Shown: in pieces, positions 10,085 to 57,100 of the stretch | Position numbering within the stretch: position 1 is the stretch's first letter | Layout of the letters: each line of letters opens with the position of its first letter | NCBI GenBank assembly: GCA_947462335.1 | Contig: OX381710.1 | Location: 57,854,842 to 57,918,841, forward strand | Length of the DNA stretch: 64,000 nucleotides | Reading direction: 5' to 3' | Origin: Harmothoe impar | Taxonomy: Eukaryota; Annelida; Polychaeta; Phyllodocida; Polynoidae | Notes under the pieces: model-generated | Databases searched by the model: none | What the model was told of the DNA's origin: nothing | Seen by the model: only the letters and a program-made list of their open reading frames with translations | Position numbers and translations under genes: made by a program

Positions 10085-10262
10085 CATGGGTAAAAATCGA
10101 CACGGGCGACACAGGGGTTATAAAAATCGACACGCGCGACACAGGGGTTTTAAAAATCGACGGACACAGACATTTTTGGGATAAAAATCGACAGATACAG
10201 GTAAAATTGGGTAAAAATCGACGGACACAGTAAACCTAGGGATAAAAATCGACGGACACAAC
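10085..10262. repeat. Degenerate tandem repeat, TAAAAATCGACGGACACAG unit
   Basis: Six imperfect copies of the core TAAAAATCGAC[AG] followed by SACACAGG-like sequence, spaced about 25-36 bp, directly upstream of the LINE reverse transcriptase fragment. Unit lengths vary, so it is not a clean minisatellite. Confidence 0.75.
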
Positions 10263-31500: not shown

Positions 31501-31572
31501 GGCCCTGTGGTGCAGCGGTAGCATTCTCAACTCCGGAGCGGAGGGACCAGGGTTCGACTCCCCGTGGGGCTC
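31501..31572 (+). ncRNA. tRNA-like sequence in left LTR (72 nt)
   Basis: Acceptor stem GGCCCTG/TGGGGCT pairs over 7 positions with three wobbles. The D arm is GTGC-AGCGGTA-GCAT. The T loop is TTCGACT on a 5-bp stem with one mismatch. The total length of 72 nt is canonical. The anticodon stem does not form properly, so it is a tRNA-derived sequence and not a working tRNA. A-box (TGGTGCAGCGG) and B-box (GGTTCGACTCC) could recruit RNA polymerase III. Confidence 0.65.
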
Positions 31573-31957: not shown

Positions 31958-32029
31958 GGCCCTGTGGTGCAGCGGTAGCATTCTCAACCCTGGAGCGGAG
32001 GGACCGGGGTTCGACTCCCCGTGGGGCTC
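31958..32029 (+). ncRNA. tRNA-like sequence in right LTR (72 nt)
   Basis: Second copy of the sequence at 31501-31572. Here the T stem is perfect (CGGGG/CCCCG). The three differences from the left copy are in the anticodon loop and T stem. Same interpretation. Confidence 0.65.
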
Positions 32030-34220: not shown

Positions 34221-37200
34221 ATGTGGATGATACCAGTGGTGGCGCTGGCTGTAGCCCTTGTATCAGGTAAGAACGTTATAGTTCATTATATGTATCAGAC
34301 TTTATATATTCTCAGCCCTCCAAACAGTGCAATAATCTGTGCCATTGGACTGAATTGGCCCTGTCCCTGTATTAGTCATTGTGCATGAGGTTTGGGATTT
34401 AAACATAACTTCTGAAAGAACCTTTATGCACGCTAAGAACCCACTACATTAGCCAGAGTTTTCATCATTCATGACATTAGGCTGGTGAGGTTTTTGAGTG
34501 TTTTGTTGGGTAAATAATGCATGCAAGCAAGCAATTCATTAGACCCAGCATCTGTGCCCTGCAGTGCAATCATTCTTTGATTTGCTTTTGCAATATCAGA
34601 TTGGAGCATTGGCATGAGGCAATTATCATTACCAATTACTCAGGTGGGTCTTCAAAGGTTACATGACAGATGATGAGATGATAGCCATGACAGCTGGTCT
34701 AGCACCACTACTCTCACCTGTGGTGCACTGCATGAACTGTTGCATTTAGGCATTCACTGAGACTGAAAATGGGCTAAGATATCTAGGAAGCCCAATTTAG
34801 GTAATATATCATTAAATCCCATGCCCATGTCAGTCACCAATAGCACGGGACACTGGCTATATCCGGCAAAATGTCTGCTGAACCAGCATGGCCATCTATA
34901 ATCTTTGTATCCATGCTAGTTATTCTACATATTTTGGAAATGGGAACATTATAAGGTTTCTAGAGAGTAAATCAAAAGACTATGTATTATCGAAATTCTA
35001 AAGATTATCGGGATACATAAGGACACTCCTTTAATCATAGCATTACAATGTACATCCTTGTTTCATAAATATTGTTAAATACAATTATTGCAAGGTATCC
35101 GGGGCTGCCAACCGTAAGCTGGGCCTGCAAAATATGTATTTTACAGTACTGAATGTAAAGCATTGTGAAAATCCTTTTGCATACTGCAGCACATAGAGCA
35201 CCACATTGCACATCCCATAAGCCTGCTACACCCCATTTAAATGGTGCAGAAAGCCTAACATAACATCTAATGAGTATGGTGGCCTCAGGCCTGATTGTCT
35301 TAACCTCCAAGTAATAAGCATTGGTGGCAGAACGGCAATGTGCCAAATCTTTGCAATTACACATGTAATTATTTACCCAATTGACACTTTAAAAATGATA
35401 TGGTGTCTTCCAACTCTATCCAGGTCTATCAGATGAGCTGCCCTCTGACTATTGCTCGGACCGACAGGCAGGTGGCTACAAGCGCCACCCTAATGACTGT
35501 TCCCGTTATGTCAGCTGCTGGTCCCCCAATAACTTCTTCATCCAGTCCTGCCAGCCTGGGTTGTTATATGATGAACGCTCTGGTGTGTGTAACTACGCTG
35601 GTCTTGTGAACTGCGAGAGTTCACCTCTACCACCCCGGGCACCCCCCACCCAGCGTCCTAAGGCAACATCACAGAGGAGGGTTTTCCTGAATGAAGTGTT
35701 TGTGACACATAGCAGGTTCCCTTTACTTGATGGTGCGTTTTACGTGAATCCACCCTTATGCATGTTTCCATGGCAACAACATCCCGAATAATCACCAATT
35801 TAGGCTTAAAACCTTCTTTTTAGATGTATACCAAATATAGATTCTCCAAATTTATATCATATTCCTCATAAAAATGATACACTAGAAGAAGTTTTGGCCA
35901 ATTTCTCCTATTTTAGGCCATGGTGACCTTAGGTGATGACTAAAATTGGTGCACTAAATCCGGGCCCCCCACAGACTCTGCTTTCTGCTTAGCTACACAC
36001 ACATTTTAGGTACAAATTTCGTTTTACATTTGGTTCTAGGAGGAATTCTTTTCTTTTCAGTTTTGAGTTGCGGATGGAATTCCCAAGAATATGTATGCCA
36101 AATTTATCTATTCTCAGCTCTCCAGTCTGTGTAAAAATTCTGTATATCTGAGCTGTTTGACTGAATTGGCCCTGTACATATTTATAACAGTCATCACTTT
36201 GCATTAAGTTTGACTACATCAGCTAGAGATCTTATTCATGGCACATAGACTAATGACGGTTCTAAGTGTTTGTTGGGTAAATAGTGCTGACAAGTAAATG
36301 CATTATACCTGGCATATGCACGTTGCAGTACTGTCGTTTCTTTGTTTGCTTTAGCAATATCAGATTGGAGCAATAGCTTAAGGCAATAATTATATGATTC
36401 CTAATTACTCAGGTTGGCTTTGATAGGTCACATGATATATGATGAGATGATAGCCATGACAGCTGGTGTATAAGAACACAACTCCAAACTCCACTGCAAA
36501 CTGTGGCATTTAGGCAATCAAGAGAAGAGACTAAAAAAAGGCTGAAAAGAAACTACAAATCCAAAAAGCTCAAATTATATCCTTGAAGTTCATACAAGGC
36601 CCATACACATTCACCACCACCAGCAGACTAGTGCATGGGCTTGAGCAAACCTTGTAAATACACAAGCCAACTCAATGGGCTGGCTTTGTGGACTAGGATG
36701 GCTTGTGCAAGTCCACTCTAGTGTGCTGGACAGTTGCTGCCAGAAGCTGGTAAAAACCCATACAGCAAATAGGCTGTAGTTGTGTGTCCAAATGACCATC
36801 AACGTTTTGTTCATGTTCATCCAAAATGTACATATCAAAATCATCAAATGATTTGGGAACACAAAGGAACTCCATTAATTATAGCATCAAAAATTTACAT
36901 CCATGCATGTTTCATGCATATAAGTTACTACAAAAATAATTATTGTCAAGTATCCATGACTGCCAATAGTAAACCAGGCTGCAAAATATGGATTTTGCAA
37001 TACTTAATTGCCTTACACGGTCAACTACCTTGTATTCTATGTAGATTAAACATTGCACATACTAAAGAATTGTGGAAAGAATATGTTTGGGATACATGCA
37101 TATATATGCATCCCTTAAGGCTCAGAAAAACCCAAGTAATTGTGAGTATAGCGTATCAAGGACTGCTTGTATTAAATTGTAACGATGTGTACCTCTATCT

Positions 37201-40200
37201 AGGTGCATCAGATGAGCTGCCCTCTGACTATTGCTCGGACAGGAAGGCAGGTAGCTACAAGCGCCACCCTAATGACTGTTCCCGTTATGTCAGCTGCTGG
37301 TCCCCCAATAACTTCTTCATCCAGTCCTGCCAGCCTGGGTTGTTATATGATGAACGCTCTGGTGTATGTAACTACGCCAGTCTTGTGAACTGCGAGAGTT
37401 CACCTCTACCACCCCGGGCACCCCCCACCCAGCGCCCTAAGGCAGTATCACGGAGGAGGGATTTCCTGAATGAAGTGTCTGTGACACATCGCAGGACGAC
37501 CCCAAGAAAACCGGACGTAGCCAGGAAAGCGATATCAGGAATGATGCATGCAGTGCACCAGGAGGACTTGTCTCACTTCATCCGGCCGGTCACTGCACCC
37601 GCACCAAACGTCAGAGTAAATGCAGGTAAGTTCCACCTTCTCACTTTTTTTACTGCCACATTTATCTATTCTATTTTTACTCACCCAATTTTTTATTTTA
37701 TACTTATCTGTCTCATTTCATCTACTTTTTCACTGTGTTCTCGCGCTCTTTCTCTGCCTCTCTAGCTTTCTATGATAGCCTAGTTGTGTTGTTTTTTGCT
37801 GATTGTCAACGTGTGTAAAAATGGAGCTTTGTTTTCTGATGGTAGATATGCGTCATGTCCATGAATGTTTTGTGTGTGTGGCAGTGTGGGGAGTGGAGTC
37901 GAGACATCTGCTGCTGTGTTGCTGCTATTGAATATGTTCCAAGTGTAGTCGCCACACATTCACAAACATTCAACTAGCCAAATTTAGTTAAATTTAAGGA
38001 CACAAAGAGGGATGACCATTGTGTTTTCCCCCAAGCATTTTCGAAACAACCTTCATTTTAATTGTTTTTGATAGGATCAGTGCTGTACTGAAAACATGAA
38101 GAGGGTTAGGGTAGGACATGGTCATCATGGGCCTTTGCTGTAGTAAGAAAAAGTCATAATCATATGCATTTGAGAAAGATATTTGGCGACAGACCTACTT
38201 TGGTCATTAGCTGTATAGAATCATTTATACATTTATATGGTTCTTTCATTGCATTGCACATATGGCATTGTCCTGTATGCCTTATTTCTGTCCTAGGTCC
38301 CAACTGTAGGAGAGATGGCTTATACCCAGACACATCTGACTGCAACCGTTACTACATCTGCACCTATGGCCGCCACTTCACATTTAACTGTCCTCTTGGT
38401 ACCTACTTCCACCCTGAGCTGCTTCGCTGTGAGTTCCTGTCTGGATTTGGCCACCATGTTTGTGCTGGTCAAAATCAGAAGACCTCGGCACCAACCCACA
38501 GACTGACACCGACCCAGGGAACGGCACCAACCAACAGAGCATCACCATCTCATAGACCAGCTACCAACCGGGCTGCCCTACCCACCCGTGGTAGGCCTTC
38601 TAGCAAGGCCACAACTGTTGGAGGTAGGCTTAACGTGTTTTAGCCCCGTTTTAGCCGCTAATTCTTAGTTCTTTACAACCTGTAACCTGAACCTACTGCA
38701 CACAGAGCTTCTAAAATAGCAGCCACTTGAACTATCAGTTACAACTTAGGCTACATGAGTCCAGTCTCAGAAAATCAAAGTGAATACAAATAATGAACTT
38801 CCAATAAGTTATCTGTACAGACCAGTTTGCTCCTCGTGTAAATGGACTATGATAATGTTAAATATATTAGTTTGTACTTGAACGACTTCATACTACTATA
38901 AATCTATTAATTTTAACCTAACATCAACTTTCATTCCTCAGATATGATGGGAGTGATAGCTAATTTCATGGCAGAGAGTAAGGAGATGGCCAAGGACAAG
39001 GTGAACGAGGCTGTGAAGATGGAGGCCATGACGGCTGGAGGACATGGTGAGGGAGACTTTTCACCAACATATATTCCATTCTGAGTAGTAGGGCATAGGT
39101 CTATGAATTTGAAGGTTCTAAATTTGAGCCGCAGTTTCTCCAGCGAGACGACTTTTACACAACAAGAAAATATATTTTTGTACTATTGTATGTATATCGA
39201 TGCAGGGTGTTATAATTATAATGAACATACAAGATTATGTTGCATTAACCACTTGATTCTGTTTTTGATAGCTGGGCAGTCTTCATTCAGTGGTGTGGCT
39301 GGTTTCCTCGGGTCAAACAAAATTGTCAAGAAGATGTCACTGGCTGCGGAACAACAGCTGGAGATGCTGAAAATCATTAAGGAGGAGTAAGTCTTCAGAC
39401 CAGATCAATACAATCATATAGCATGAATGTTTGAAACAATGGAAGGCCATTGCGCACTAAAAAATGAATGACATAACGTAATTTAAAGCTACTGATTTCT
39501 TTTTAATTATTACATTTTTCAGGATAGCAGAATACAAAGAAAGCTAATTTGTATCAAACACAAAAGTTCTAAGGGTATGATACCCATTCTGGCATCATAG
39601 TATGTGCATTTCAAACAGGGAAATGAGCGTAATTTGCCTTCTGACTGCGATCTTAAGTGGAAGGACCAGAAATTCAAAATGGTGGCACATTGACAGTGAT
39701 GTATCGCTTCACCACAGCCATTGATCTCCAGACAGGTTGATTTTTATACTAAAATCTCTATCTCTATCTATTTGATTTCAACTTATAATATATCATTTTC
39801 CAGGTTTGATTTATCTAAAGATCAGGTTAAAATGGTGATGAGCAAAATGCATTCCCCACTGGGTACCAACCCATCGCGGGTTGTCCCAGACACTCCTCGT
39901 GAACGAATCAAAATGGATCTGGACACTTGTCCCTACCCGAATGAGCAGCGCCGCTCCAGGTGCCAATCATCCTCCCGCTACAGGACCATAGATGGCTCTT
40001 GTAACAACATGCAGCACCCCCTCTGGGGCCGCTCCAATACTCCCTTCACACGCTTTTTAGACCCAGACTACTGTGACAGTAAGTTCATTCATCCCTTGTT
40101 ATTAATTAAATGCTCAATGATGAAATCAAAATGGCATCAAAATATCATCTGAGTATACATTCATATACTTATGATGTTGATATACATCCCATTCCAAAGC

Positions 40201-43200
40201 ATTACGCGTTTGTGCCCCCGAAAAGAGACGTATCTCCAGTGCTGTCTAGTATATAGGGCTTTAGTAAAATTCGAGACCTTTGTTTTAATTCATGGATCTT
40301 TTGCACAGAATAAAAAAAAGAATGACAAAACGTGGGAGGACGTGACATTAGGAGAAAACACCTTTATTTAAGTTCATGTCTTCAGCTACAATTTGATGCT
40401 TTAAGCATCAAAATATTTGAAATAGTTGCTGAGAAATGTCATCTCAAACATGGGATGGTAGGGACATGTAGGAATTCAGAATAGACTGCAATGCAAATAC
40501 ATATCAATCTATTTTCAAATAATCCATATAAATCATATTTATTAGAAATTAAACCAACAAATACATATTATTGATGAGAAAGTACATGGTTTACACTTTT
40601 TGTTTTGTTATCTAGATCGTATGACTGTATCTATTTACCGAAATGGTAATACTGATTGGCTGAGGCTTAGGGCCAGTTTCCTTTACATGAATCATCTCAT
40701 ATGATGAGATACCTGGTAAAATCAGTCCCATTGTAGCACTTTAGACATTTTGAATGGTCAGCCTATTGCAAAGTCCAAATCCACAGTACACTCGAAAAGA
40801 TACATATTTCCAGTGCTGTTCAGAGCGTTCTATATGATGTTCTTCTTTAATCCTACATACAGACATGTGAAAACAGAAGAGGAGAAACCGAGAAGGAGTT
40901 GCTTCAATATATTCATGCTATGTCTGCTAATGTTGTTTTCAATTTACTTATCACAGATATAGGCTGCCCCCGTCGCAGCCGTGACAACAGTACCCTGCCC
41001 CCAGCCCGCCTGGTGAGCCGCACCCTGTTCACATCTAAGCCCACGCAGAGCCACGTCCACACCACCATGCTGATGACGGCTGGACAGTTCCTGGACCACG
41101 ACCTCACCAAGACGGCCTTATCTATGATCTCCTCTGACGCCGCAGGTACCAGGTCCTCAGGTCAGCAGTCAGCCATTCAGCAGTCACTCCACAAGTCGTT
41201 ATATTCATGTTGTGTAGATTAATTATCGTATGAATTGGGATTTATACAAAATCGTCATGTAGTCCCTACAATCATTGACATCCATGAGGCCTCCTTGCTA
41301 CAATTACTGTCATTACTCATTGACAGTATTATGCTTTCTTTCAATCCATAACAGTATATAAAATATTTATGTTGATTAATGATTGTTCCTAACCATAATG
41401 TATCGTACATAATAGATCTTAGATATAACTGCCAAATTGGTCACTGAGTACACTCTGCTTGTTTCTTCATGTATGTCGTGTCTTAATGTCATGTCCATGT
41501 TGTCATTCAAGCTTTGACCAGACTACGACATGAATAACTGGGACAACGTGACTCAAAGCAGAGATTCTAAGGAATCTCTCTCTGACTGCATCTTGTGAGA
41601 CACCCCTAGCAATGTTCCAAAGTCCTTAGTAGTAATTCTGTTACTATAAAACCTTTCGAGATCTTCTCATTCCAAATAAGTTTATTTCACAGCATTTTTA
41701 TTATTATCCGAATTCGAGATTATAAATGATTATTTCAAAAAGACCGTTATGTTAATTCAAACTTATGGTTCAATAACTGCATGAACAGACACGAACGAAC
41801 ATCAATATTCAGACCCTGGTTCATCTGTATAGATGAATAAGCATTATCGTGATTTTATGGTTTAATATGTATGTTTTGTGATTACTATATTCGTGACTCT
41901 GGATTAGACTAACTGAACGGCTGACACCAACCTGTACTGGTGTTGACTTGTCCAGGGGCTCCTTGAATGGCTGTTTAAGCCAGTGCCTATGTCAACACAA
42001 TGTTGAAACAGGCACTGAAAATCCCAATGACCGACCTAAAACTGATTTAAGGGTTAGGGCTCCAGTTCTGAGGACCCTGATTCTAAATTCTTTAGCTCTG
42101 AAAGCCCTAGCTCGAAATGGCCTAGTTCAGGGGGCCCCTGGAAAAGCTCTGCACACACATGTAAGACTGTTTACCCTTGAGTGATCAAACTGGACTAGTA
42201 TCTCACAAACCAAACTAACTACATGACTATTGACAAGCACGGTTACCAAAAGTTCTCTGTCGAAGTGTATGTGTGGTTTAAGTAGGTTTAAGATACTTTT
42301 TTTTCTTGAGAAATTTGTGGTGATAACTAAGATTGTCTAAGTTATAGAAATTAATTTATTGTGAATGATGAGATATACCCTGATGAATTGCGACTTAAAG
42401 AGAGACAACAACGAAAATGCAACTGCCAACTGTGATATAACATGCTAATGCTATACGCACCCACTATGACTAAATGATACAAGTTCCTTAACCAGGTGGG
42501 GGCAGCCTGTCTGAGGTGACTTGTGGAACTGATGGCTGCTCTACAGAAGGACCAGAGAACAGAGCCTGCTGGCCGATAGAGATCCCTCCTGGTGATCCAG
42601 CCTTTGGATCCCTGAGGTGCCTCATGTTTGTACGGACCCAGGAGGTGCCCCAACTAGACTGCCAACTCGGTGAGTGCCTGCTTACCTGGGTCTTAGGTCA
42701 GGGAATCTTGAATTCTAGTTCATCTTTGGGTAGTCGGTCTTTATCAGAAGCAGTAGTCAAACTTTACATGAAAGTCCCTGATGTGTCCTTACTTGCGTTT
42801 GGGGGAATGGATAAACAGAGCAAGAGGCATTTGGAAACGTAAATAAAAGGGGAGGAATGAAGGAAGGAAGGATAAGCATTGTTATAATGACCATGCAGTT
42901 ACAATAATTCGGGGGATACGTAATAGAGAGAGGAGGATCTCAAAAGATGAACAATTAGCACTAATTCAATTGACGTCTAAAGGAAATAAAAGAATGTGTA
43001 TGACTGTATCCCCCTGGCCCGTCGCCATTGTCACACCTTGTATGCTAAAAATGGATGACATGTGTTGTTAGAGGGATCCAAGTACAAACGTGGACAACAG
43101 AAACAATACGCGCGGGTCCTACATGCCGTTATCATACCTTGCCGATGCATTTTATGACCTTTCATCCACCATCTGGCCCCTACATATATGCCAGCACTCA

Positions 43201-46200
43201 CTCCCCAAACACAATCCACACACTCCTGAAGCCTGTACTGTGTTATATGAATCACAATCGATATCTGCTTGGAGAGTATGGTTTGTGGAGGTGTAGCTGC
43301 GCATGCCCAGGTGACGTTTCTGCTACAGGTGGGTTTGACCCTGACTTTGACCTTGGTAGTGACACCTGGTGTCAGGGTCGGAGTATGTATTTGTGGTCTG
43401 GAGCTAAGGCCACAACCCCTGGTGTACTTAGCATCCACGTACGGCAGGGTTAAAGATGAGTCGGTCAGTATGTAGACACAGACTGCTGTCAGACATGTCA
43501 TGTAATAAAAAGGCTAGATAAAAAGCCAACATAAAACAATTACATGTAACATAAGTTTCCTAATAATCGTATTTAAGCAAAACGACATCCATCAAAATGT
43601 TAGGTCAACATGTATGGCCAATTCATGAATAATCTAGTATTAAAAATAATAAGTTTGACCATATCAACTAGAATGGTGCCGTAGTACAATGTGTAGTAGA
43701 TACTCTGTCCGTGGCTCTCTATCGGAACCCTGCACTCTAGATTTACCAGGAAGGCGTTTCTCGTTTATGGAAGTGACTTACGGACCCCCGTTAAGAAAGT
43801 TATGGACTCCATAAGTCAATTTATGGACTATGGACTTTCCAAAACAAGCTATGAAAATGCATTTCTATGAAGTTATAAATCATGCCATGAGGACCGTATA
43901 GGCAGGGCCTTACTTTTCTGTACAAAAACAGTGGTCTTTCTAGCCTTAATTAAGAGAACTAGAAGAAAGTTATGGTTTATGGAAAAAAAGTTATGGACTC
44001 AATGATTCCCCACCAGAAACGCCCTCCTGGAATCAGCACTATAATTATGTTCCTTATAGTTGTTTTGTTGTGCCGGCAGGACCCCGTCAGCAGCTGAACC
44101 AGCTCACCCACTACATGGACGCCTCCATGATCTACGGCTCCACCAAGGAGGAGGCCGAGAGTCTCCGACCTGCAGACAGCAGTACGTAGTGCTTGTTATC
44201 TACATGTACAACTTCATCATACCACTCCGCTAATCACCGCCCTCTTTTGATACATTTACTGACATCAATTATGTTATATCAGAAACTGCAGAAGATAGGA
44301 CCTGTTAAAGCCAGTGTAGGCTAGAAGGAACATGTGGAGTACCCCAGTGGTCTATCCTGGGTACTGTGCTGTACTGTGTTGGCTTCAGAAGCCATACAAA
44401 ACGCACTTCCTCTAAAACAGCCACCCCATCGATATGGCCATGTGTCCATATTTCCAGTGGGTGGCCACATAACAGCTAGTTGGGATGCAAAGTTATTCAA
44501 TAAGGGCTATTGTACAGATGTCTGTTACAGACAAGTATAAACTCAAAGGTAAGCTCATGAATTTGAAATAATTATATTTGGCAGGTCGCGGTAAGCTGCG
44601 GATGTCCAGGAACCTTAACCCCCACTACAAACCACTGTTACCTCAAACAGACAACGACGAGTGCCGGGACGTCAACTCCACCATCCGCTGCTTCAAGGCT
44701 GGTACGTGCACAGGGGGAGTCATAGTACCTACTCTACCACTTGTATTTTGGTCAGACCAATTTCTAGGACATTAATTATAGACACATGTTAGGCCTATAA
44801 AGTATCATGGGTTACGCTTGGTTGATGCAGATGATTGAATATTCATGATATATAGGTGACAATTCTTTGTAGTCCGAGTTCTGATTGCTTGATACCAGTG
44901 ACAATAAATTCTATCTACCTAATGCAATTTCTGATTTGTTAAAAGTTAGACTAAAGACATGTCCACAACATCACATATTATCAAAAGAACATGCCATAAT
45001 ATTTGGTCACAGCGTATGATGGGTCTGGAAATGCTGGTGAGCCCTTTCATCAATTGGCTTCCTTAATTTTTCTATTTAGAATGTTTTCCATGGTAAAGTC
45101 CTATTAACCATGCAACAAGAATACCAAGTTAACTTCGCTCTAAAACATTCCATTTGGGTCATATCTTTATATCTTAAATATAAAAGATTTAATTGCACCC
45201 AAAATGGAATTCTTTGTTGTACTTGTCCGGCTATTAAGGCGCCCCTGATGGCTAAAACCGATGGCTTAAAATCGCTCACGGAGGTTTTCCCTTGTTAATC
45301 TGCATGTAACGTCCTGATTGGTTGATGTAGGTGATGACCGTGTCAATGAGAACGTGCCGCTGACCGGTCTCCACGTGGTGTTTGCCCGCACCCACAACGA
45401 CATCGAGTCCGGCCTCCATCGGGCTAACCCTCAGTGGAGAGGGGAACGTCTGTACCAGGAAACCAGACGTATTGTGGGAGCCGTCTGGCAGCATATAGTA
45501 TACAACGAGTACCTGCCCATCGTCCTTGGTCCTCAGGCCATGAGCCGCTATGGTCTGACTCTACAGAGAGCGGGCTACAGCACCGGTTAGTACTGACATC
45601 CATTTCTCAGCTGAATTTGGCAAGACTGTATGGGTACCCATTTCCAATTAGTTCTGTTAGAGAATTGTATTAACTGTACTGTCTTGTTTACTTTAAGCAC
45701 CAGAAAAGGGCTCTAGACATATCTATTATGCACTAAAATCATGAGCAGGTATCAGCACCGGGCAATGGGGGTAGTCACTCGGGTAGTCATGAAGCCTCCA
45801 CATCTAGAAGCGTTAAGGCGCTAGTTACATGATGATAGGCCTCAGTATATTCAGCCAGTGGGGTTTGAAATTGCAGTATGTTCTTCTGTAAATCATAAAT
45901 CTTATAACCTTTATTTTCATTGATATATAATTTCCCATGTGTCTTTTACCAGTGTACGACCCGTCTGTGAGTGCAGATGCAGCGAACGTGTTCGCCACAG
46001 CCGCCTTCCGCTTCTCCCACAGCATGATCCCGGACACGGTGGTGTTCAGCAACAACAAGTACCAGATGAGGGAGAGCAAGCCGCTCAGCTCGGTGAGTCC
46101 TGGTGGTCAGTCTGTACAGGCCGCTCAGCTCGGTGAGTCCTGGTGTGTGTCTGTACAGGCCGCTCAGCTCGGTGAGTCCTGGTGTGTGTCTGTACAGGCC

Positions 46201-49200
46201 GCTCAGCTCGGTGAGTCCTGGTGTGTGTCTGTACAGGCCGCTCAGCTCGGTGAGTCCTGGTGTGTGTCTGTACAGGCCGCTCAGCTCGGTGAGTCCTGGT
46301 GTGTGTCTGTACAGGCCGCTCAGCTCGGTGAGTCCTGGTGTGTGTCTGTACAGGCCGCTCAGCTCGGTGAGTCCTGGTGGTCAGTCTGTACAGGCCGCTC
46401 AGCTCGGTGAGTCCTGGTGTGTGTCTGTACAGGCCGCTCAGCTCGGTGAGTCCTGGTGTGTGTCTGTACAGGCCGCTCAGCTCGGTGAGTCCTGGTGTGT
46501 GTCTGTACAGGCCGCTCAGCTCGGTGAGTCCTGGTGTGTGTCTGTACAGGCCGCTCAGCTCGGTGAGTCCTGGTGTGTGTCTGTACAGGCCGCTCAGCTC
46601 GGTGAGTCCTGGCGGTTAGTCTGTACAGGCCGCTCAGCTCGGTGAGTCCTGGTGTGTGTCTGTACAGGCCGCTCAGCTCGGTGAGTCCTGGCGGTTAGTC
46701 TGTACAGGCCGCTCAGCTCGGTGAGTCCTGGTGTGTGTCTGTACAGGCCGCTCAGCTCGGTGAGTCCTGGTGTGTGTCTGTACAGGCCGCTCAGCTCGGT
46801 GAGTCCTGGTGTGTGTCTGTACAGGCCGCTCAGCTCGGTGAGTCCTGGCGGTCAGTCTGTACAGGCCGCTCAGCTCGGTGAGTCCTGGCGGTCAGTCTGT
46901 ACAGGCCGCTCAGCTCGGTGAGTCCTGGTGTGTGTCTGTACAGGCCGCTCAGCTCGGTGAGTCCTGGCGGTCAGTCTGTACAGGCCGCTCAGCTCGGTGA
47001 GTCCTGGTGTGTGTCTGTACAGGCTGCTCAGCTCGGTGAGTCCTGGCGGTCAGTCTGTACAGGCCGCTCAGCTCGGTGAGTCCTGGTGTGTGTCTGTACA
47101 GGCCGCTCAGCTCGGTGAGTCCTGGCGGTCAGTCTGTACAGGCCGCTCAGCTCGGTGAGTCCTGGTGTGTGTCTGTACAGGCCGCTCAGCTCGGTGAGTC
47201 CTGGCGGTCAGTCTGTACAGGCCGCTCAGCCCGGTGAGTCCTGGTTGTCAGTCTGAACAGGCCGCTCAGCTCGGTGGTCAATCTGGACAGAGAGGGATTG
47301 AGGGACATTTATAGGATGTCACAATGCCCTCCGACAATGATTATGAGCCACCATGTGAGGAGAGGATGGCTCTATGAGGATGGGGAGGACACATGCTGAC
47401 CAACAGGCACATATACAACCGGGGGTTGGGAATCGGGTGACTCCTGTCAGCTCAGTGAACCTAGAACCAAGGACTGCTCGGGGAACTTCTCAAACTGAGA
47501 AATGTGATTAACAACTTCATTAATTTATTATTCTAGGTGCTGCGTCGTCCATATGAAGTGTACAACAATGCCCATACAAGTGGGTCTGCTGTTGACGCCA
47601 TTATGCACGGTGTCATGTCCCAGAGTGCAATGCGCATTGACCGTCACTTCTCCAAACAAGTCACACAACATCTATTTGCAGAGAACCCTCCACATGGGCC
47701 TGGTAAGTATAACCCTCATACCATATAGGCAATATACCATCAGAAATTCGCTGCAACCAGTTACAGTACCCAGTGAGTACACATAGAAAAGAAACAGAGT
47801 CAAAAGGCACACTTTTCTCAACCATATCTTGCATGGCAGACAATGGTCTAGAGTTTTCAGCAGCCATGTCTTGTGAGATCTAAAGGTTACATTATATTAC
47901 AGAGTGTTTCCAAGGCAGACTGTTTAGGGGAATCACAGTGCTTCATAATATTTGTTTAACCATTTCTAGCAAATAAGTTAAAAATACCCATGAAGCAATA
48001 GCTGATATACGCATGCCAACTGGTAGAATCCTTCAGATCGAGACTGTCTGCTGCATAATCAGCCACTATGGCTGTGAGCCTCTATTTAATTATTTATTGA
48101 ATTATTTCCATGACTGTATTCCCTTTGTACTTCAGGTACGGATTTAGCATCAATCAATATTCAGCGTGGACGTGACCACGGGTTGCCATGTAAGTGCAAA
48201 ATGTCACCCTCAATACCTCTGTCACAATAAGTACATGCTGTGCTGTTAGAATAGACAAAATGAAGTACTAGCATGTATCACACCTTACTACTATTTCTAA
48301 TACATCAGAGACTGGAATCAGAAGTGTGTCATCGGCCACCACTTTATTAGCCATATGTCACATGGCCTTACAGTTTCCTGGTTAGTGCACCATTTCGGGC
48401 AGTACAACCCTACATACTGATGCAACACCACGTCAAAATATAAATCATCATGACCCTTTCCAGCATACAACACCTGGAGGAAGTGGTGTGGGCTAAAGGT
48501 AGCCCGTACCTTTGAGGAGTTGGTGGACCTGCCTGCAGAGGACAGGGCAACCCTCAAGAGTGTTTATCAGTAAGTGTCATCTCTCATTCCCCTCCAGTTC
48601 CAATGTCCATTACTCACATCACATCAAATACCGTTTTGTTGGTATCCACCCGCCCCCTTAAGTCTAACTTTCAGGTGAGAGTGGTTTTAGCGACAATGAC
48701 GCTGACTTTTCTGAGTGTGTAACCTTTCTCTATGTTCCTCCGTTCTTCCCATCTGCCATCCTCCATCACCGCCCATCTCGTAACTGGTGTATGTCCCTGT
48801 TCTTACTCTGGAACCCGTTGGACTATGGCTCTACGATCTTCATGTCCTCCCATTCGTCACCCCCCCCTACCCCCTTGCTTTCCCCTTTCCCCTTAATTCC
48901 TCCCACACTCTGTACAGTACTGTTCCCTACCTCTATATCACTCTCTGTTCCTCTCTTCTCCCATTACTGCCTGTTTGACTGCAGTCCCTATACATGTGTT
49001 GGCGTGTTTCAGACACGTGGATGACGTGGACGTGTTTGCCGCCTCTGTCTGTGAGGATAACGTGGCGGGCGGCATGGTGGGCCCCACCTTTGCCTGCATC
49101 CTCGGACGGCAGTTCAGGAACTCCAAGGTCGGAGACCGCTTCTGGCATGAGAACGGGGATCCCAAGGTCAGGTTCACTCCAGGTGAGTCGATGGGCGGAT

Positions 49201-51502
49201 TGATAGACACCAGGCATACATGTACCTTCCGAAATAAGGGAGTGATCATTTTTTATCAACAGGGGGGGGGGTTGGTTTGGGGGGGGGCAAAAAAATTTGG
49301 ACCCCTTGACCGGGGGGGTGTAAAAAATTTGGACCCCTCTTGGGGGGGGGGGTCAAAAAAATTTAACCTGTTTTGGGCCAAAAAGCCCGCGCGTTACTAT
49401 GCTTCAAAGGGCCCGCGCGCGCGCCGATTTCCGACCCGTGGGGGGGGGGGGGGTAAAAAATTTCGACCCGTTGACCGGGGGGGGGTGAAAAAAATTTCGC
49501 ACGCTCCGCGCGGAAAAATCCCCCCCCCCCCCTGTTGTTAAAAAATGATCACTCCCTAAGGCCCCTATCAACTATTGCCCGTTTTACGTGGGGTGGGAGG
49601 GAAGCGGTACACCATTTACTATTGACATGGTTGTGTGTACCTTGGTGAGAGATATCTTCCATTGTAACATTTAGGGAGGTTGCCATTGTTGTTGCTAAAT
49701 GCAATAATTGTACATAAGTGGCCCTTAGATAAAAATGACTTTGGTGAACAATGACCGTTAGGCCACTTAAAAAAATAAAATGGTTTCTCATCACCGCACA
49801 CATCATAAAAATCAGCTTTGGAGTGATTATTTTTTTCAGATATTGGCATATTTGGTATCAAATTAAAGCTTATACTGCCAGTTATGCAGTAGGATAGAAA
49901 TGACTTACATTTTCCCCACTTTTAAAGACCAATACATTCTTAACTACTAAAATGTGAATTTAGGTTGTGAAAAACATATCATATTATTCTACACATTTTG
50001 GCCCGTGAGTAAAAAAACACACAATAAAAACCTCCCTCGTCTCATTTTTGAGTCCTTGGTGATGAGAAACCACTTTTTTTAGTGGCCTCAGTGAGAGGGA
50101 TATTGGCCAACAGTTATAACCCTTCGAATCACGCACACATGTATAAGGAATGCCCCCCCCCCCCCCGCCTGGGTACATAGGATCGGTTCAGCACTATTCA
50201 TAGATTTCCATGAGTCTGGCAGACTGTTAGCTGGATTATGTCTGTAGAGCAGTGAAACTACACTGTAAAAAATCACCGTTGAAATTACGGAGAATCAATG
50301 CCAAATTTGACGGTGTATCACCGTAATTGTGATTTACGGTGAGACACTGTAAAACTTATTACTTTCACATTGAACATCCGTAAACCAGTACAGTGAAACA
50401 ATGTTTTTTCATTTACGGTGAATCTCACGTTAAAAGTTTGCTCACCAGGTGGCAGCTTGGTTTGATAGAGAGACTTTAGTGGAACCTATCAACTAAAAAC
50501 ATACATAATTGTGTTAGATTTATAAAGATATCCAAATATCTCATTAATTATACAGTCAAAATTAAAGCCTTTGGCATAATAAAGATGAAAAATACATAAT
50601 TTCCTTTTTTCAGACCCTGGACACTAGTACGAATAGTATAAACACCCATGTTGTGGTAATTAGAATTATACATATTGAGACTGTTGTCAGAGTTTCTTTG
50701 TAACAATCCTAGAGTACCTTTTGCTCATGGATTGTAATTGTATATTGCTATGAGGCATTCAATTATGCTTCTCAGGCCTAATATATGTATACAGGCCTGG
50801 AATTAAGATGATATTATGAAATATACAACAATGAATTAATCCAGAAACAATTATAATCATCATTGAATAGCAGAGAATCACCGTATAATAATGATGAATC
50901 ACCGTAAAAATACAACAGGAAAGGCCTGTAAAATTTACGGGGGAAAGCAAAATACGGTGACCGTAAAAAAAACGGGAAACGGTCGGCATTCAGTGATGCA
51001 AGTGATTCACCGTAATTTTTACGGGATATTTTTTACAGTGTACTAATACTATCTTGCTGTCAACTTCTTTAGGTCAGTTGAAGGAGATTCGGAAGATGAC
51101 CTTGTCCAAGCTGGTGTGTAAGACCTCTGACCTCAGGCCATCTGAGTCTATGGTGCAGAAGTATGCCATGCTCAGACCATTAAGTGAGGCCTTCAAGGAG
51201 CTGGGGTAAGTGCATCTATACTGTCTTATTGGGTGGCATTCGATGATTTTTATCCACGTGGTCTCTAAGAACTGCTTAAAGGGTCCCTAAATACCCACAT
51301 TATACAAAAAAAAATGAAGTGCCCATTTACTGACTTCAAACACATGGTGTTCTCCCCTCATTATATCTGCTTTTGTTGCTGTTTCAGATCAAGGAACTAT
51401 GCTGAGGTGTACAGCATGGTCAGTTTGTACCACGGTGAACAGAATGAACGACGACCCTGCAGCGCCCTACCAGACATGGACATGACCCAGTGGAGACAAT
51501 GA
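34221..51502 (+). CDS. Secreted chitin-binding (CBM14) animal heme peroxidase, 19 coding exons
   Basis: Coding exons with GT..AG borders and matching phases: 34221-34266, 35424-35732, 37203-37625, 38297-38623, 38942-39046, 39272-39386, 39804-40078, 40957-41145, 42496-42669, 44080-44181, 44585-44701, 45331-45585, 45953-46092, 47537-47702, 48136-48189, 48464-48569, 49013-49182, 51073-51205, 51388-51502. The sum is 3321 bp (1106 aa). Domains: signal peptide (MWMIPVVALAVALVSG), three CBM14 domains, Pro/Thr linkers, then a myeloperoxidase-superfamily domain. Heme-site residues are present: distal GQFLDHD, catalytic Arg and ester-linking Glu in GDDRVNEN, proximal His in AFRFSHSMIP, calcium-loop YMDASMIYGS, and INIQRGRDHG. 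It should use hydrogen peroxide to oxidise halides or phenols at a chitinous or mucous surface. The exon 2 donor is uncertain (35732 or 35714, both in phase). Confidence 0.9.
34300..37495 (+). repeat. Tandem segmental duplication (period about 1.78 kb) carrying a CBM14 exon
   Basis: Copy 1 (about 34300-35715) and copy 2 (about 36090-37495) align through intron and exon, e.g. TGACTGAATTGGCCCTGT in both introns, and TGATGAGATGATAGCCATGA. Exon parts differ at only about 16 of 290 positions whereas introns are much more diverged and gapped. Homology stops near the end of the CBM14-encoding segment, after which the exon tails differ. Confidence 0.85.
35424..38623 (+). other. CBM14 (peritrophin-A) module of the peroxidase: exons 2-4
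   Basis: Exon 2 (35424-35732) and exon 3 (37203-37625) each encode nearly the same chitin-binding domain with the six-Cys pattern (SDYCSDR, NDCSRYVSCW, SCQPGLLYD, GVCNYA, NCES). Exon 4 (38297-38623) encodes a more diverged one (GPNCRRDGLYPDTSDCNRYY, FNCPLGTYFHPELLRCEF). All exons are phase 1-1, so any combination keeps the frame and exon skipping would yield one-, two- or three-domain forms. Pro/Thr-rich tails follow each domain. Confidence 0.85.
39523..39547 (+). other. Possible alternative terminal exon of peroxidase gene
   Basis: An acceptor (ACATTTTTCAG) at 39522/39523 is phase-compatible with the donor of exon 6 (39386) and would add EIAEYKES and stop, giving a secreted chitin-binding protein without peroxidase. 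No clear poly(A) signal follows, so this may be a cryptic site. Confidence 0.25.
46081..47272 (+). repeat. Minisatellite of exon end plus splice sites, 31 copies of 39-40 bp
   Basis: The first unit is the real 3' end of exon 13 (CCGCTCAGCTCG|GTGAGT at 46092/46093). Thirty further copies of the exon-end word follow at 39- or 40-bp spacing, all but the last with GTGAGT and almost all preceded by TCTGTACAGG (GTACAG acceptor-like). Variants TGTGTGTCTG, TGGTCAGTCTG and CGGTCAGTCTG or CGGTTAGTCTG distinguish unit types. The final unit (47261) lacks the GAGT. Many 39-bp units keep the exon frame open, so partial retention would be translated. The next real exon starts at 47537. Confidence 0.97.
49238..49556. 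repeat. Harbinger-like MITE rich in G-runs, in peroxidase intron 17
   Basis: The termini GGGAGTGATCATTTTTTA and the reverse complement TTAAAAAATGATCACTCCC are flanked by TAA on both sides (49235-49237, 49557-49559), fitting the 3-bp TWA duplication of PIF/Harbinger elements. The interior has runs of 7-14 G followed by AAAAATTT and GACCC words. A partial relative lies at 33020. Non-coding. Confidence 0.8.
50261..51040. repeat. CACTGTAAAAAAT-ended element with TTACGGTGA array, in intron 17
   Basis: The ends CACTGTAAAAAATCACCG and TATTTTTTACAGTG are inverted and flanked by TA. CACCGTAA or its complement occurs about ten times, confined to the outer thirds (50270-50430 and 50870-51035), with an AT-rich middle. 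Non-coding; 780 bp. Confidence 0.8.
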
Positions 51503-52098
51503 ACAAATCAATACTAAACAGTATATTCCATGTCCAGCTTTGTCCATTTATTTCACTCTGCTCTCATTCAGTTGAGACAAATGCACGTTGTCTCCCTAAT
51601 CATTTTCATCAGACTCCCTAGAAAAGATGACATGGTAATTCCTGTCTAAAGTTTAGTAGTTTGACCTCTTGTCAATGTTCTCAAGTAGGTTTAGCATGTT
51701 TCTATTCCAACTTTAAATCTCAACTTGTCATATAACTTTAGCTTGAAATGTAGTGTAGTACCTTCCTTAAAAATGTTATTTAAAAGACATCCTGCATGCA
51801 TTTTTCTAGCTTTTCCCAATCATGGTCTGTGTTAATTTGTAATTAAAAGGTTCAGACAAAAACAACATGACAAGGACAAGAGTTTAGGGTTATACGACTA
51901 ACCATATGTATTATACAGTCTATTCAAAGGGCTTAATTGTTCAGTCTGTGGGCCCAGTTGTACTTTATCACATTGCCACATTCTACTAGCAGTGACACGT
52001 TAAATAGTATTTACCGGATATTCATGATGTGCACAAAAGTGTTTCAAGACTCAAAATAGTTCTTCGATGATAATTTTCTCCCCTAAAATAGCTCTAAG
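51503..52098. other. 3' flank of peroxidase gene
   Basis: AT-rich; contains the 3'UTR. ATTAAA near 51842 is the first poly(A)-like hexamer noticed. No other gene. Confidence 0.4.
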
Positions 52099-54106: not shown

Positions 54107-57100
54107 GTACAGGAACTTTAGATGAATTCTAACCCAAACCTGGAATTAAATACCATAAAGCTGAAAATTTCAGGAATGGCTCGTTATCATATTAGGTTTG
54201 ACCTCTTAAAAGTCCTGGAGTGTCCTATGTGGGCTTCCATTGAAAAACGGGCCAAATCCAATATGGCCGCCAAATAATCAGAATCTCATCTCCAATAATG
54301 ACAATATCACTCCTAGAATAATTTAAACCTTACCTACCCCCCCTAAATTGGGTACAAGGAATCCACTGGTGTCATTGGTTAATTGCTAGGACAAGTGGTT
54401 GCTTAGCAATAGCAGGTTTGCATAGCAAACCGGGCTTAGAAGCAAGCATCTACGGCAAAACCCCAAGACTCCATTTAGGAAGATCTTTACATCACTCACC
54501 CCAACTAAATGAACCCCAATGAATCAATTGGTATGGCTAGGACCTCTAGTTGGTTAACAATATCACTTTCAACCATATAATTGCTTAGCAACTCAGGTTT
54601 GCATAGCAAACTGGGCTTAGAAGCAAGCATCTACAGCAAAACCCCATTACAACATTCAGGAAGATCCTGACATCACCCACCCCTATACTAAATTAACTCC
54701 AATGAATCAATTGGTATTGCTAGGTCCTCTAGTTGCTTAGCGATATTACTTCCAATTATATTGTTGCCTAGCAACACCGGTCTAACTTGTTCCTAATGCA
54801 ATATCAATATAGCGATCCCCTCAAAAGGAACAGTGAGGATACCAATCATGTCATTAATCTCTTTCTTTTCTATTCAATTCATGTGTGCTTGCTTAGCAAC
54901 CTTGGTTATATTTATTTATTTGCCTAGCAACACCATGGGCCCCCTGATCAATTTTCATTCTGCCTTTCCTTATATTATAAGATAATCCTGGGATAGAAAT
55001 GAAAGTGTAGCTAATCACTCGTTACTAACATATTCTCTCTAAAATTGATTATTCGGGTTAAAGGAAAAGACCAGCGTGATTTCATGTGGCCTTCTATCGG
55101 TAGTATTGATTAGCAATATTCTGACTTGGACACTATCAAAATGTGAATCATGTACTTAAACCAGTAATAAAGAAGATCAGAGTGACATCACATGAGACCA
55201 AATATGTACCCAGTCATACAACTCCTATACAAGTTCGGTATATTCTACTACAATTTACAGTGTAATAGAAGGTAATATATGGCTAGGGGGCTATTCCTTG
55301 CATACATGAAGTAATTACAACCCCCTTTTCCTTCTCATTTTGTACAGACAGTTATAAGGGAGGCCACAATAGTCTTATCAAGCACAGACCAGGGGTGAGG
55401 TAGCTGTCTGCTTCTGTCACTCTCTACACAGATTGTTTTGTGAGACAAGAGTTATTTCAGCTGAGGGATCAGTCTTGCATTGACCCCGATGGAGTGCACA
55501 TGGGGGGGCAGAGATATTGTATTTTACTTACCCCATTAAACTACATGGCAATATGGGTTTATTTCTTACTTATGTATCTCAATAAATCTCATTACTAGAT
55601 TAAATAAAATGAAAATAATTGATATTGAAAGTGCCTCCCTCTAGAGTAGGGAGCACTGGGGTGGCTTGCAGCTGGCCCTGGGGCAGGTAGGCCCCAGTGG
55701 GGAGCACTAGGGTGGCTTGCAGCCGGCCCTGGGGCAGGTAGGGCCGGGTATGGAACACTGGGGCAGGTAAGGCCGGGTATGGAACACTGGGGTGGCCCGT
55801 AGCCGGCCCTGGAGCAGGTAGGGCCGGGTAGGGAGCACTGGGGTGGCTTGTAGCCGGCCCTGGGACAGCAGGTATACACATGCACACATTGTAGAGGCAC
55901 TAGATGAAGCCATAAAGTAATATTTTTATAACAATATTGGACAATAGATTTAAGAACTTGCCTGTATACAAACTATACTATACACTACAGCATATCTGAT
56001 GTCTGCACATGCTTACCCTAACTCAATTTATTAGATAAATAAAATGACTTTTCATGGATACTATTACCTTGGCCTGTATACAATATCACTTAATTGTAAT
56101 TAATCGAAGCCTAAGGCCAGTACAAACTTGTACAAACTTGTACAAACTATGTTGCTTTCTACTGGGCCCTACCTGCCCCAGGGCCGGCTACAAGACACCA
56201 CTATCAAGCCCCATTATATTCCATGACAACTTCCCCTCCCAGGTAGTCGAGGTATCAAGCCCCATTATATACCATGGCAACTTCCCCATCCAGGTAGTCG
56301 AGGTATCAAGCCCCTTTATATTCCTTAGCTTAGGATTAGCTTGGGTATATTCCATGTCAACTTGAAGACCTAAGTTGCCATGGGATATACTGAGGTTGGA
56401 TGAGGTTGTCATGAGAAATAAGTAATAAGTATATCTCTTAAACCTCCATTTTCGTGCAGTGTTAATACTGCTGCGTCTGGGGATTCAATCTGCCGCATTC
56501 TGTGGAGTTTAAACCATCATAGAGCTGGATGGAAAGGGTTAATAGTGCCATTGCTATCCAACATCAGTAACATTTAACCTTTTGCTAAGCAACTCCCACA
56601 ATTATAAATGACATCATTGTTTTTCTTTTTCCACTTGGTGCTGTTCAATATCAATTCTAGATTATGTTAAAACATCTCAATCTGCATGGAATTCAACCAC
56701 AAAAAAGTGAAATGTGAGTTGCTAGGCAATTATGTATTTGAAAGTAATGATGCTAAGCAACTAGAGGTCAAAACTGAAGCAATATTAGCAATGTGTTCCT
56801 TAGAGTTGATTTAGTGGGGCTCTGTGATACCTGCAGGTTCTTCCTGAATGGCACCATGGGGGTCTCACTATAGATATTTGCTTTTAAGACCAGGTTGCTA
56901 GGCAAGCCTGCTATTGCTAAGAAACTGCTTGTCCTAGCAACAAACCAATGACCCCAGTGGATTCCTTGCACCTATTTTAGAGGAGTAGGTAAGGTTTGTA
57001 TTCTTCTAAGATGAATATTGTTGTCATAGGAGATGGGTCTAACCCTGGTTTGCTAGGCAAACCTGCTGTTGCTAAGCAACCACTTGTCCTAGCAACAAAC

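What the first reader, a model, noticed from the sequence alone, without database searches (positions are those of the whole stretch)
46081..47272. Minisatellite built from an exon end and its splice donor: 30 extra 5' splice sites
Each 39-40 bp unit repeats the last 12 nt of exon 13 and the donor CTCG|GTGAGT, plus a CTGTACAG|G acceptor-like site, so every unit could act as a 13-nt microexon or an alternative exon end. The array begins precisely at the real exon-intron border. The splicing machinery must choose among about 30 identical donors. Most units are 39 bp, a multiple of three, so the retained sequence translates as a 13-residue repeat, which could make copy-number-dependent isoforms.
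Basis: seen in the sequence. Interest (0 to 1): 0.75.

Follow-up and report, generated by a model that had tools for sequence, protein, structure and literature searches.

The report
Splice-site minisatellite in a scale-worm gene
About 30 tandem copies of an exon end with its splice signal sit at a real exon border of a scale-worm peroxidase gene; such arrays ("mirages") are known from lancelets, and several related genes of this worm carry their own, so the kind is known but its recurrence in an annelid looks new.

Summary
Window 46080-47290 holds 31 tandem units (19 of 39 bp, 11 of 40, one of 30), each the last 13 nt of a coding exon plus its donor and about 26 nt of intron; 30 of 31 keep G|GTGAGT. 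The gene encodes CBM_14 and haem-peroxidase domains; contig sizes and COX1 match Harmothoe impar, a polynoid annelid. The isoform idea is not supported: donor 1 alone of 31 keeps the frame when joined directly to the next exon, and 8 of 9 homologues align without a gap at that join. Such arrays are known as "mirages" in amphioxus. Beyond the finding: in 76.8 kb of related peroxidase/DUOX loci, 6 of 6 arrays with units of 30 bp or more (this one and a duplicated pair included) sit at splice junctions. My paper searches showed no annelid case. Best reading: a minisatellite seeded at a splice site, tolerated because the first donor is used. No RNA could be examined, and no independent gene family could be sampled.

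The parts
45953..46092 (+).
   Evidence: acceptor ...TTTTACCAG before it and GTGAGT after it; An_peroxidase hit of the joined exons, E 1.2e-180
46080..47290 (+). Minisatellite ('mirage') of 31 units: 13 nt of exon end + donor + about 26 nt of intron start
46093..46098 (+). Donor 1 (GTGAGT), whose use keeps the reading frame and matches homologues
47221..47290 (+). Degenerate last two units: CCG|GTGAGT, then a unit lacking about 10 nt and the donor
47537..47702 (+). Next coding exon (VLRRPYEVYNN...), after acceptor TTATTCTAG
39272..51502 (+). Haem-peroxidase part of the gene, 14 coding exons modelled by eye (some ends uncertain by a few nt); a CBM_14 exon lies upstream at about 35.4 kb and two more look-alikes at about 37.2 and 38.3 kb
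   Evidence: Pfam was run on the 35.4-kb CBM_14 exon and the joined peroxidase exons only

Best explanation
The array is a 'mirage': a minisatellite that arose by tandem duplication of the last 13 nt of a coding exon together with its 5' splice site and about 26 nt of intron, and then grew and was homogenised by slippage or unequal exchange. Shown: the anatomy; the exact start at the border; loss of frame with every donor but the first when joined directly to the next exon; continuity of homologues across the donor-1 join; unrelated arrays at other splice junctions of related genes in the same genome. Inferred: the spliceosome joins donor 1 to 47537, and the other 29 intact donors are intronic bystanders whose occasional use gives frameshifted messages for nonsense-mediated decay; copy number drifts neutrally. 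Not shown: any RNA junction, any allele length.
For: 31 near-identical units starting at the border. Donor 1 alone of 31 keeps the frame. Of 9 homologues examined (picked from 120 listed of 2859 found), 8 align without a gap at SS|VL; Lingula P0003 reads EFSSVFRRPALVY against PLSSVLRRPYEVY. Same architecture in paralogues: L025 (C5), 20 donor units of 36 bp starting at the exon end ...NGFTQ + A|GTAAGT; L023 (C7, 8.3 Mb away), 16 donor units of 36 bp after ...REHGIPG and 9 acceptor units of 74 bp before YDARVQ; DUOX-like L035 and L033 (C6), 33-bp units whose last copy supplies the acceptor of exon EVMQENPRSQIEELL.... Amphioxus mirages are reported not to disturb regular splicing (passages of PMC3087553 and PMC3902484).
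Against: No RNA-seq or second haplotype could be read here. Of the 9 homologues, P0025 has a 6-residue gap covering the join, and P0002 and P0014 have gaps nearby. In the DUOX arrays the 13 nt after the AG only weakly resemble the exon start, so the exon-derived part is unclear there. The array donor is strong (U1 duplex -9.4; 9 of 674 GT sites of 39150-51600 outside the array, the exon's own donor included, are as strong), so use of downstream donors is not excluded.
Confidence: 0.85

Rival explanations
1. The array is a working splicing device as in human IFI6: several downstream donors are really used and regulate the amount of productive message (extensions that lead to decay) rather than making protein isoforms.
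For: 30 strong donors; a cited human precedent in which downstream repeat units serve as donors (PMC4526556 passage).
Against: Nothing here shows use of donors 2-30; joined directly to the next exon all of them break the frame; the amphioxus mirages studied by RT-PCR are reported not to disturb splicing.
Confidence: 0.1
2. Copy-number-dependent protein isoforms or tandem 13-nt microexons.
For: Each unit has an acceptor-like CTGTACAG|G 13 nt before its donor; 3 or 6 microexons keep the frame, as do donors 2-8 with 2 microexons and donor 9 with one.
Against: Single microexons and all direct donor extensions break the frame; the acceptor-like site has a poor pyrimidine tract (TGTGTGTCTGTACAG, judged by eye); 8 of 9 homologues have no gap at the join.
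Confidence: 0.03
3. Assembly artefact (expanded or collapsed array).
For: Tandem repeats are hard to assemble; PMC3087553 reports an aberrantly assembled mirage in a draft.
Against: The units carry ordered variants (39- and 40-bp types), the array is 1.2 kb and the assembly is a PacBio SEQUEL II one with QV 58.6 (passages); exact copy number could still differ.
Confidence: 0.02

Closest known systems
Mirages of amphioxus (Adh3, globins BflGb6 and BflGb9, troponin C; similar repeats in PGBD5)
   Same: Minisatellite-like tandem duplications spanning an exon-intron boundary, at donors and at acceptors, with splice signals in many units (passages of PMC3087553 and PMC3902484; the original Adh3 paper was not seen).
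   Different: Here a polynoid annelid, not a cephalochordate; about 30 homogenised units of 39-40 bp against 3-6 units of 150-160 bp in BflGb6 (Adh3 units are 10-72 bp, so the unit size itself is not new); several paralogous peroxidase and DUOX-like genes carry unrelated arrays at different junctions.
[quoted passage not shown] 1995)
   Same: A minisatellite whose units are splice donors (reference title and one passage of PMC4526556).
   Different: In IFI6 two downstream units are reported to be used as donors; here usage is unknown and direct use would break the frame. The 1995 paper is not held.
Internal tandem repeats at exon-intron boundaries of human segmental-duplication genes; intron gain by tandem genomic duplication
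   Same: Tandem repeats at exon borders can create or activate splice sites (passages of PMC2812944; PMC4974935 and PMC3443670 seen only as search listing with the start of the abstract).
   Different: No new intron is seen here; the repeated part lies inside an existing intron.

Membership tests
Mirage (splice-junction minisatellite) | Repeat unit spans an authentic exon-intron boundary | tested here: met
   13 nt of exon + GTGAGT + intron per unit, first unit at the border
Mirage (splice-junction minisatellite) | Several tandem near-identical copies | tested here: met
   31 units of 30-40 bp, 94% matches
Mirage (splice-junction minisatellite) | Donor and acceptor junctions of the genome can both carry them | tested here: met
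   donor arrays in the window, L025 and L023; acceptor arrays in L023, L033, L035, of which the L033/L035 unit is only weakly like the exon start
Mirage (splice-junction minisatellite) | Length instability between haplotypes or individuals | tested here: inconclusive
   one haplotype held; duplicated DUOX-like genes, 95.3% and 97.5% identical in two aligned stretches, have 8 against 10 complete units, which shows turnover between paralogues only
Mirage (splice-junction minisatellite) | Regular splicing not disturbed (RT-PCR) | not testable with these tools
   no RNA data here; homologue continuity is indirect support
IFI6-type multiple-donor minisatellite | Downstream repeat units used as donors in mRNA | not testable with these tools
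   no RNA data; every downstream donor joined directly to the next exon breaks the frame
Intron gain by tandem duplication | A new intron inside former coding sequence | tested here: not met
   the array lies between two exons that join in frame and align with homologues

The most novel reading that the evidence does not exclude
In this polynoid genome splice junctions are preferred birthplaces of minisatellites: independent arrays, each from its own junction, have arisen again and again, at donors and acceptors, so that something tied to splice sites or to exon borders during transcription promotes tandem duplication, in an annelid as in lancelets.
Probability: 0.35. Interest if true: 0.75.

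Novelty: new member of a known kind. Interest (0 to 1): 0.5.

Why it matters
One array alone is a neat example of a known oddity. Several unrelated arrays at different junctions of one gene superfamily in an annelid suggest that mirages are not a lancelet speciality. They give natural series of about 9 to 30 near-identical splice sites on which competition between equal donors or acceptors can be read from RNA-seq, and a possible source of raw material for intron gain.

Tried and rejected
Protein isoforms from the repeat: rejected on frame for direct splicing. Dispersed origin of this unit: a whole-genome DNA search (which skips simple repeats and very common words) returned it only here, plus two 65-69% matches on C21 that are one different 33-bp array with its own donor CAG|GTAAGT; I recognised no exon beside that one by eye, and it was found through its likeness to the query, so it is left out of all counts.

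Genome-wide donor triplets: GGTRAGT three times, 12-42 apart, gives 18,745 matches against 9,211 for the reversed pattern. The places listed, only the first ones on C1, are mostly a 30-33-bp satellite, a 40-bp array and (GTGA)n repeats, so I draw no conclusion. A stricter pattern did not complete, nor was an independent gene family, PF00067 (asked repeatedly), nor an ADH5 protein query. So the recurrence rests on one superfamily. Controls: 104 kb around and including the window has this as its only array with a unit of 30 bp or more and at least 4 copies (the scan listed arrays from 3 copies up, and one 31-bp x 3.6 row falls below the cut). 50 kb from five chromosomes (five of six stretches asked for exist) has one, of 69-bp unit, in which I saw no full CAG|GTRAGT. 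The cut-offs (unit >= 30 bp, >= 4 copies) were chosen after seeing the data; with unit >= 12 bp the score is 6 of 8.

Full report
The sequence. Window 46080-47290 holds 31 head-to-tail units: 19 identical units of 39 bp, 11 of 40 bp and a last one of 30 bp (TRF). The commonest unit is GCCGCTCAGCTCG|GTGAGTCCTGGTGTGTGTCTGTACAG, where the bar in unit 1 is the exon end at 46092. Donor G|GTGAGT is kept in 30 of 31 units. The 13 exonic nt differ in 2 of the first 30 units; the main variation is a TGTGTGT against GGTCAGT-like stretch in the intronic part. The last two units are degenerate.

The gene. Joined exons give an animal haem-peroxidase domain (PF03098, E 1.2e-180), and an upstream exon a chitin-binding CBM_14 (PF01607, E 6.8e-11). 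The best named homologues are Lingula, Owenia and Ridgeia peroxidases at 44-46% identity; myeloperoxidase is the best solved relative. The genome is 1,511.8 Mb in 736 contigs. COX1 on C736 is 98% identical to a cluster named Phyllodocida; the next named hits, at 93-91%, include Branchipolynoe, Branchinotogluma and Neanthes. Contig lengths (C1 124.10, C2 111.32, C3 93.07, C4 87.89, C5 87.48, C6 85.95, C7 84.46, C8 83.40, C13 71.58, C21 64.98 Mb) agree with those printed for Harmothoe impar chromosomes 1-8, 12 and 18 (PMC10541532, passages). The paper counts 1,512.3 Mb in 861 scaffolds, slightly more than is held here. The window thus lies on chromosome 7 of a PacBio assembly (QV 58.6).

Which donor. 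With donor 1 the exons read ...ESKPLSS|VLRRPYEVYNN.... Of 9 homologues examined (of 120 listed, 2859 found), 8 align without a gap at this point; P0025 has a 6-residue gap covering it, and P0002 and P0014 have gaps nearby. Spliced directly to the next exon, donors 2-31 shift the frame or meet a stop: 1 of 31 keeps it. Because unit 1 is 40 bp, the '39 = 3 x 13' argument fails at the first step. Reading on through the whole intron meets a stop at residue 151 from the exon start. On paper 3 or 6 microexons, donors 2-8 with two microexons, or donor 9 with one would keep the frame, but each microexon needs an acceptor with a weak pyrimidine tract. The donors are strong by U1 pairing, so leakage is possible; no RNA data are available here.

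Other genes of this genome. A protein search gave 36 matches, 30 of them with loci. I took 28 loci (L001 and L006-L035 without three that others cover), merged to 19 blocks and 76,770 bp; TRF gives 8 arrays with unit >= 12 bp and >= 4 copies, 6 of them with units >= 30 bp. All 6 are at splice junctions: this one; L025, 36 bp, 20 donor copies from the exon end ...RPNGFTQ + A|GTAAGT; L023, 36 bp, 16 donor copies after ...INIQRGREHGIPG; L023, 74 bp, 9 acceptor copies before the real ...CTTACCTTACAG|ATTACGATGCGCG; and the DUOX-like pair L035 and L033, 33 bp, whose last copy supplies the acceptor of exon EVMQENPRSQIEELLMGMASQITEREDNIITPDLR (DUOX1 match E 2.2e-13). In that pair the letters after each AG are only weakly like the exon start. 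The pair is a duplication (95.3% and 97.5% identical in two aligned stretches) with 8 against 10 complete units, so it counts once for origin: five independent arrays, four of them not the one I was given. The two arrays with shorter units (16 and 14 bp) do not reach an exon block.

How unlikely. With 79 exon blocks (about 158 edges) in these blocks, a founding unit of 33-39 bp placed at random touches an edge with probability 0.066-0.078, and one of 74 bp with 0.15. For the four independent arrays other than the given one that is about 5e-5 by chance (my arithmetic). This is post hoc, uses approximate exon edges and one gene superfamily, and the DUOX exon beside the array was added by eye. 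By contrast arrays of this size are scarce elsewhere: one, namely this one, in 104 kb around the window and one in 50 kb from five chromosomes. One search listed arrays from 3 copies up; a 31-bp array of 3.6 copies at 10151-10260 is under the 4-copy cut. A 10-kb stretch on C21, found through its likeness to the array, holds several more, one of them with a perfect donor, none beside an exon that I could recognise. The genome-wide count is inconclusive.

What is known. Tandem repeats spanning exon-intron boundaries are called mirages in amphioxus: Adh3, globins, troponin C, with similar repeats in PGBD5 (passages of PMC3087553 and PMC3902484). They are described as length-unstable and as not disturbing regular splicing. 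Human IFI6 has a minisatellite whose units serve as donors (cited in PMC4526556; the original is not held). One search named annelids; it returned a single paper, on earthworm metallothionein intron repeats (also listed), whose passages do not describe junction-spanning units. The other listings (and 20 of 26 papers) showed no annelid case. Most subscription papers are not in that library.

Verdict. The wider point, unrelated mirages recurring in one annelid gene superfamily, is the part worth following up.

Noticed in passing
L025 849-1566; L023 8-656 and 1688-2309; L033 2246-2597; L035 621-904: Unrelated arrays at donors or acceptors of paralogous peroxidase and DUOX-like genes of the same genome.
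   Followed up: yes
L004 4814-5603: 33-bp x 24 array with donor CAG|GTAAGT in its consensus on C21; neighbouring arrays of 31, 40 and 21 bp; no exon recognised.
   Followed up: partly
window 55645-55863 and 56202-56321: Short arrays of mostly 51-bp units (about 2 copies) whose units hold CAG|GTAAGG- or CAG|GTAG-like sites; no exon assigned.
   Followed up: no
G000:C1:591750-592809, 810205-810577, 835572-836481: Satellite GGTGAGTAACTCAGCACTATACAACTGTTAACT (30-33 bp) at three places listed by the donor-triplet pattern.
   Followed up: no
G000:C1:968273-969879: A 40-bp array with CAG|GTGAGTTACA in most listed units, a possible further donor array.
   Followed up: no
L041 1501-2832 (contig C466): A second, very divergent mitochondrial-type COX1 in the assembly, perhaps from an associated animal.
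   Followed up: no
window 35399-35791 and 36773-37765: Two open frames with near-identical CBM_14-like stretches and flanks, a duplication inside the gene.
   Followed up: no
window 31501-31572 and 31958-32029: A tRNA-like sequence of unclear type and a tRNA-Ser-like one about 450 bp apart, perhaps tRNA genes or a tRNA-derived repeat.
   Followed up: no
G000:C6:82771401-82774589 and C6:82858369-82861503: DUOX-like genes in opposite orientation 87 kb apart, 95-98% identical, with different array copy number.
   Followed up: partly
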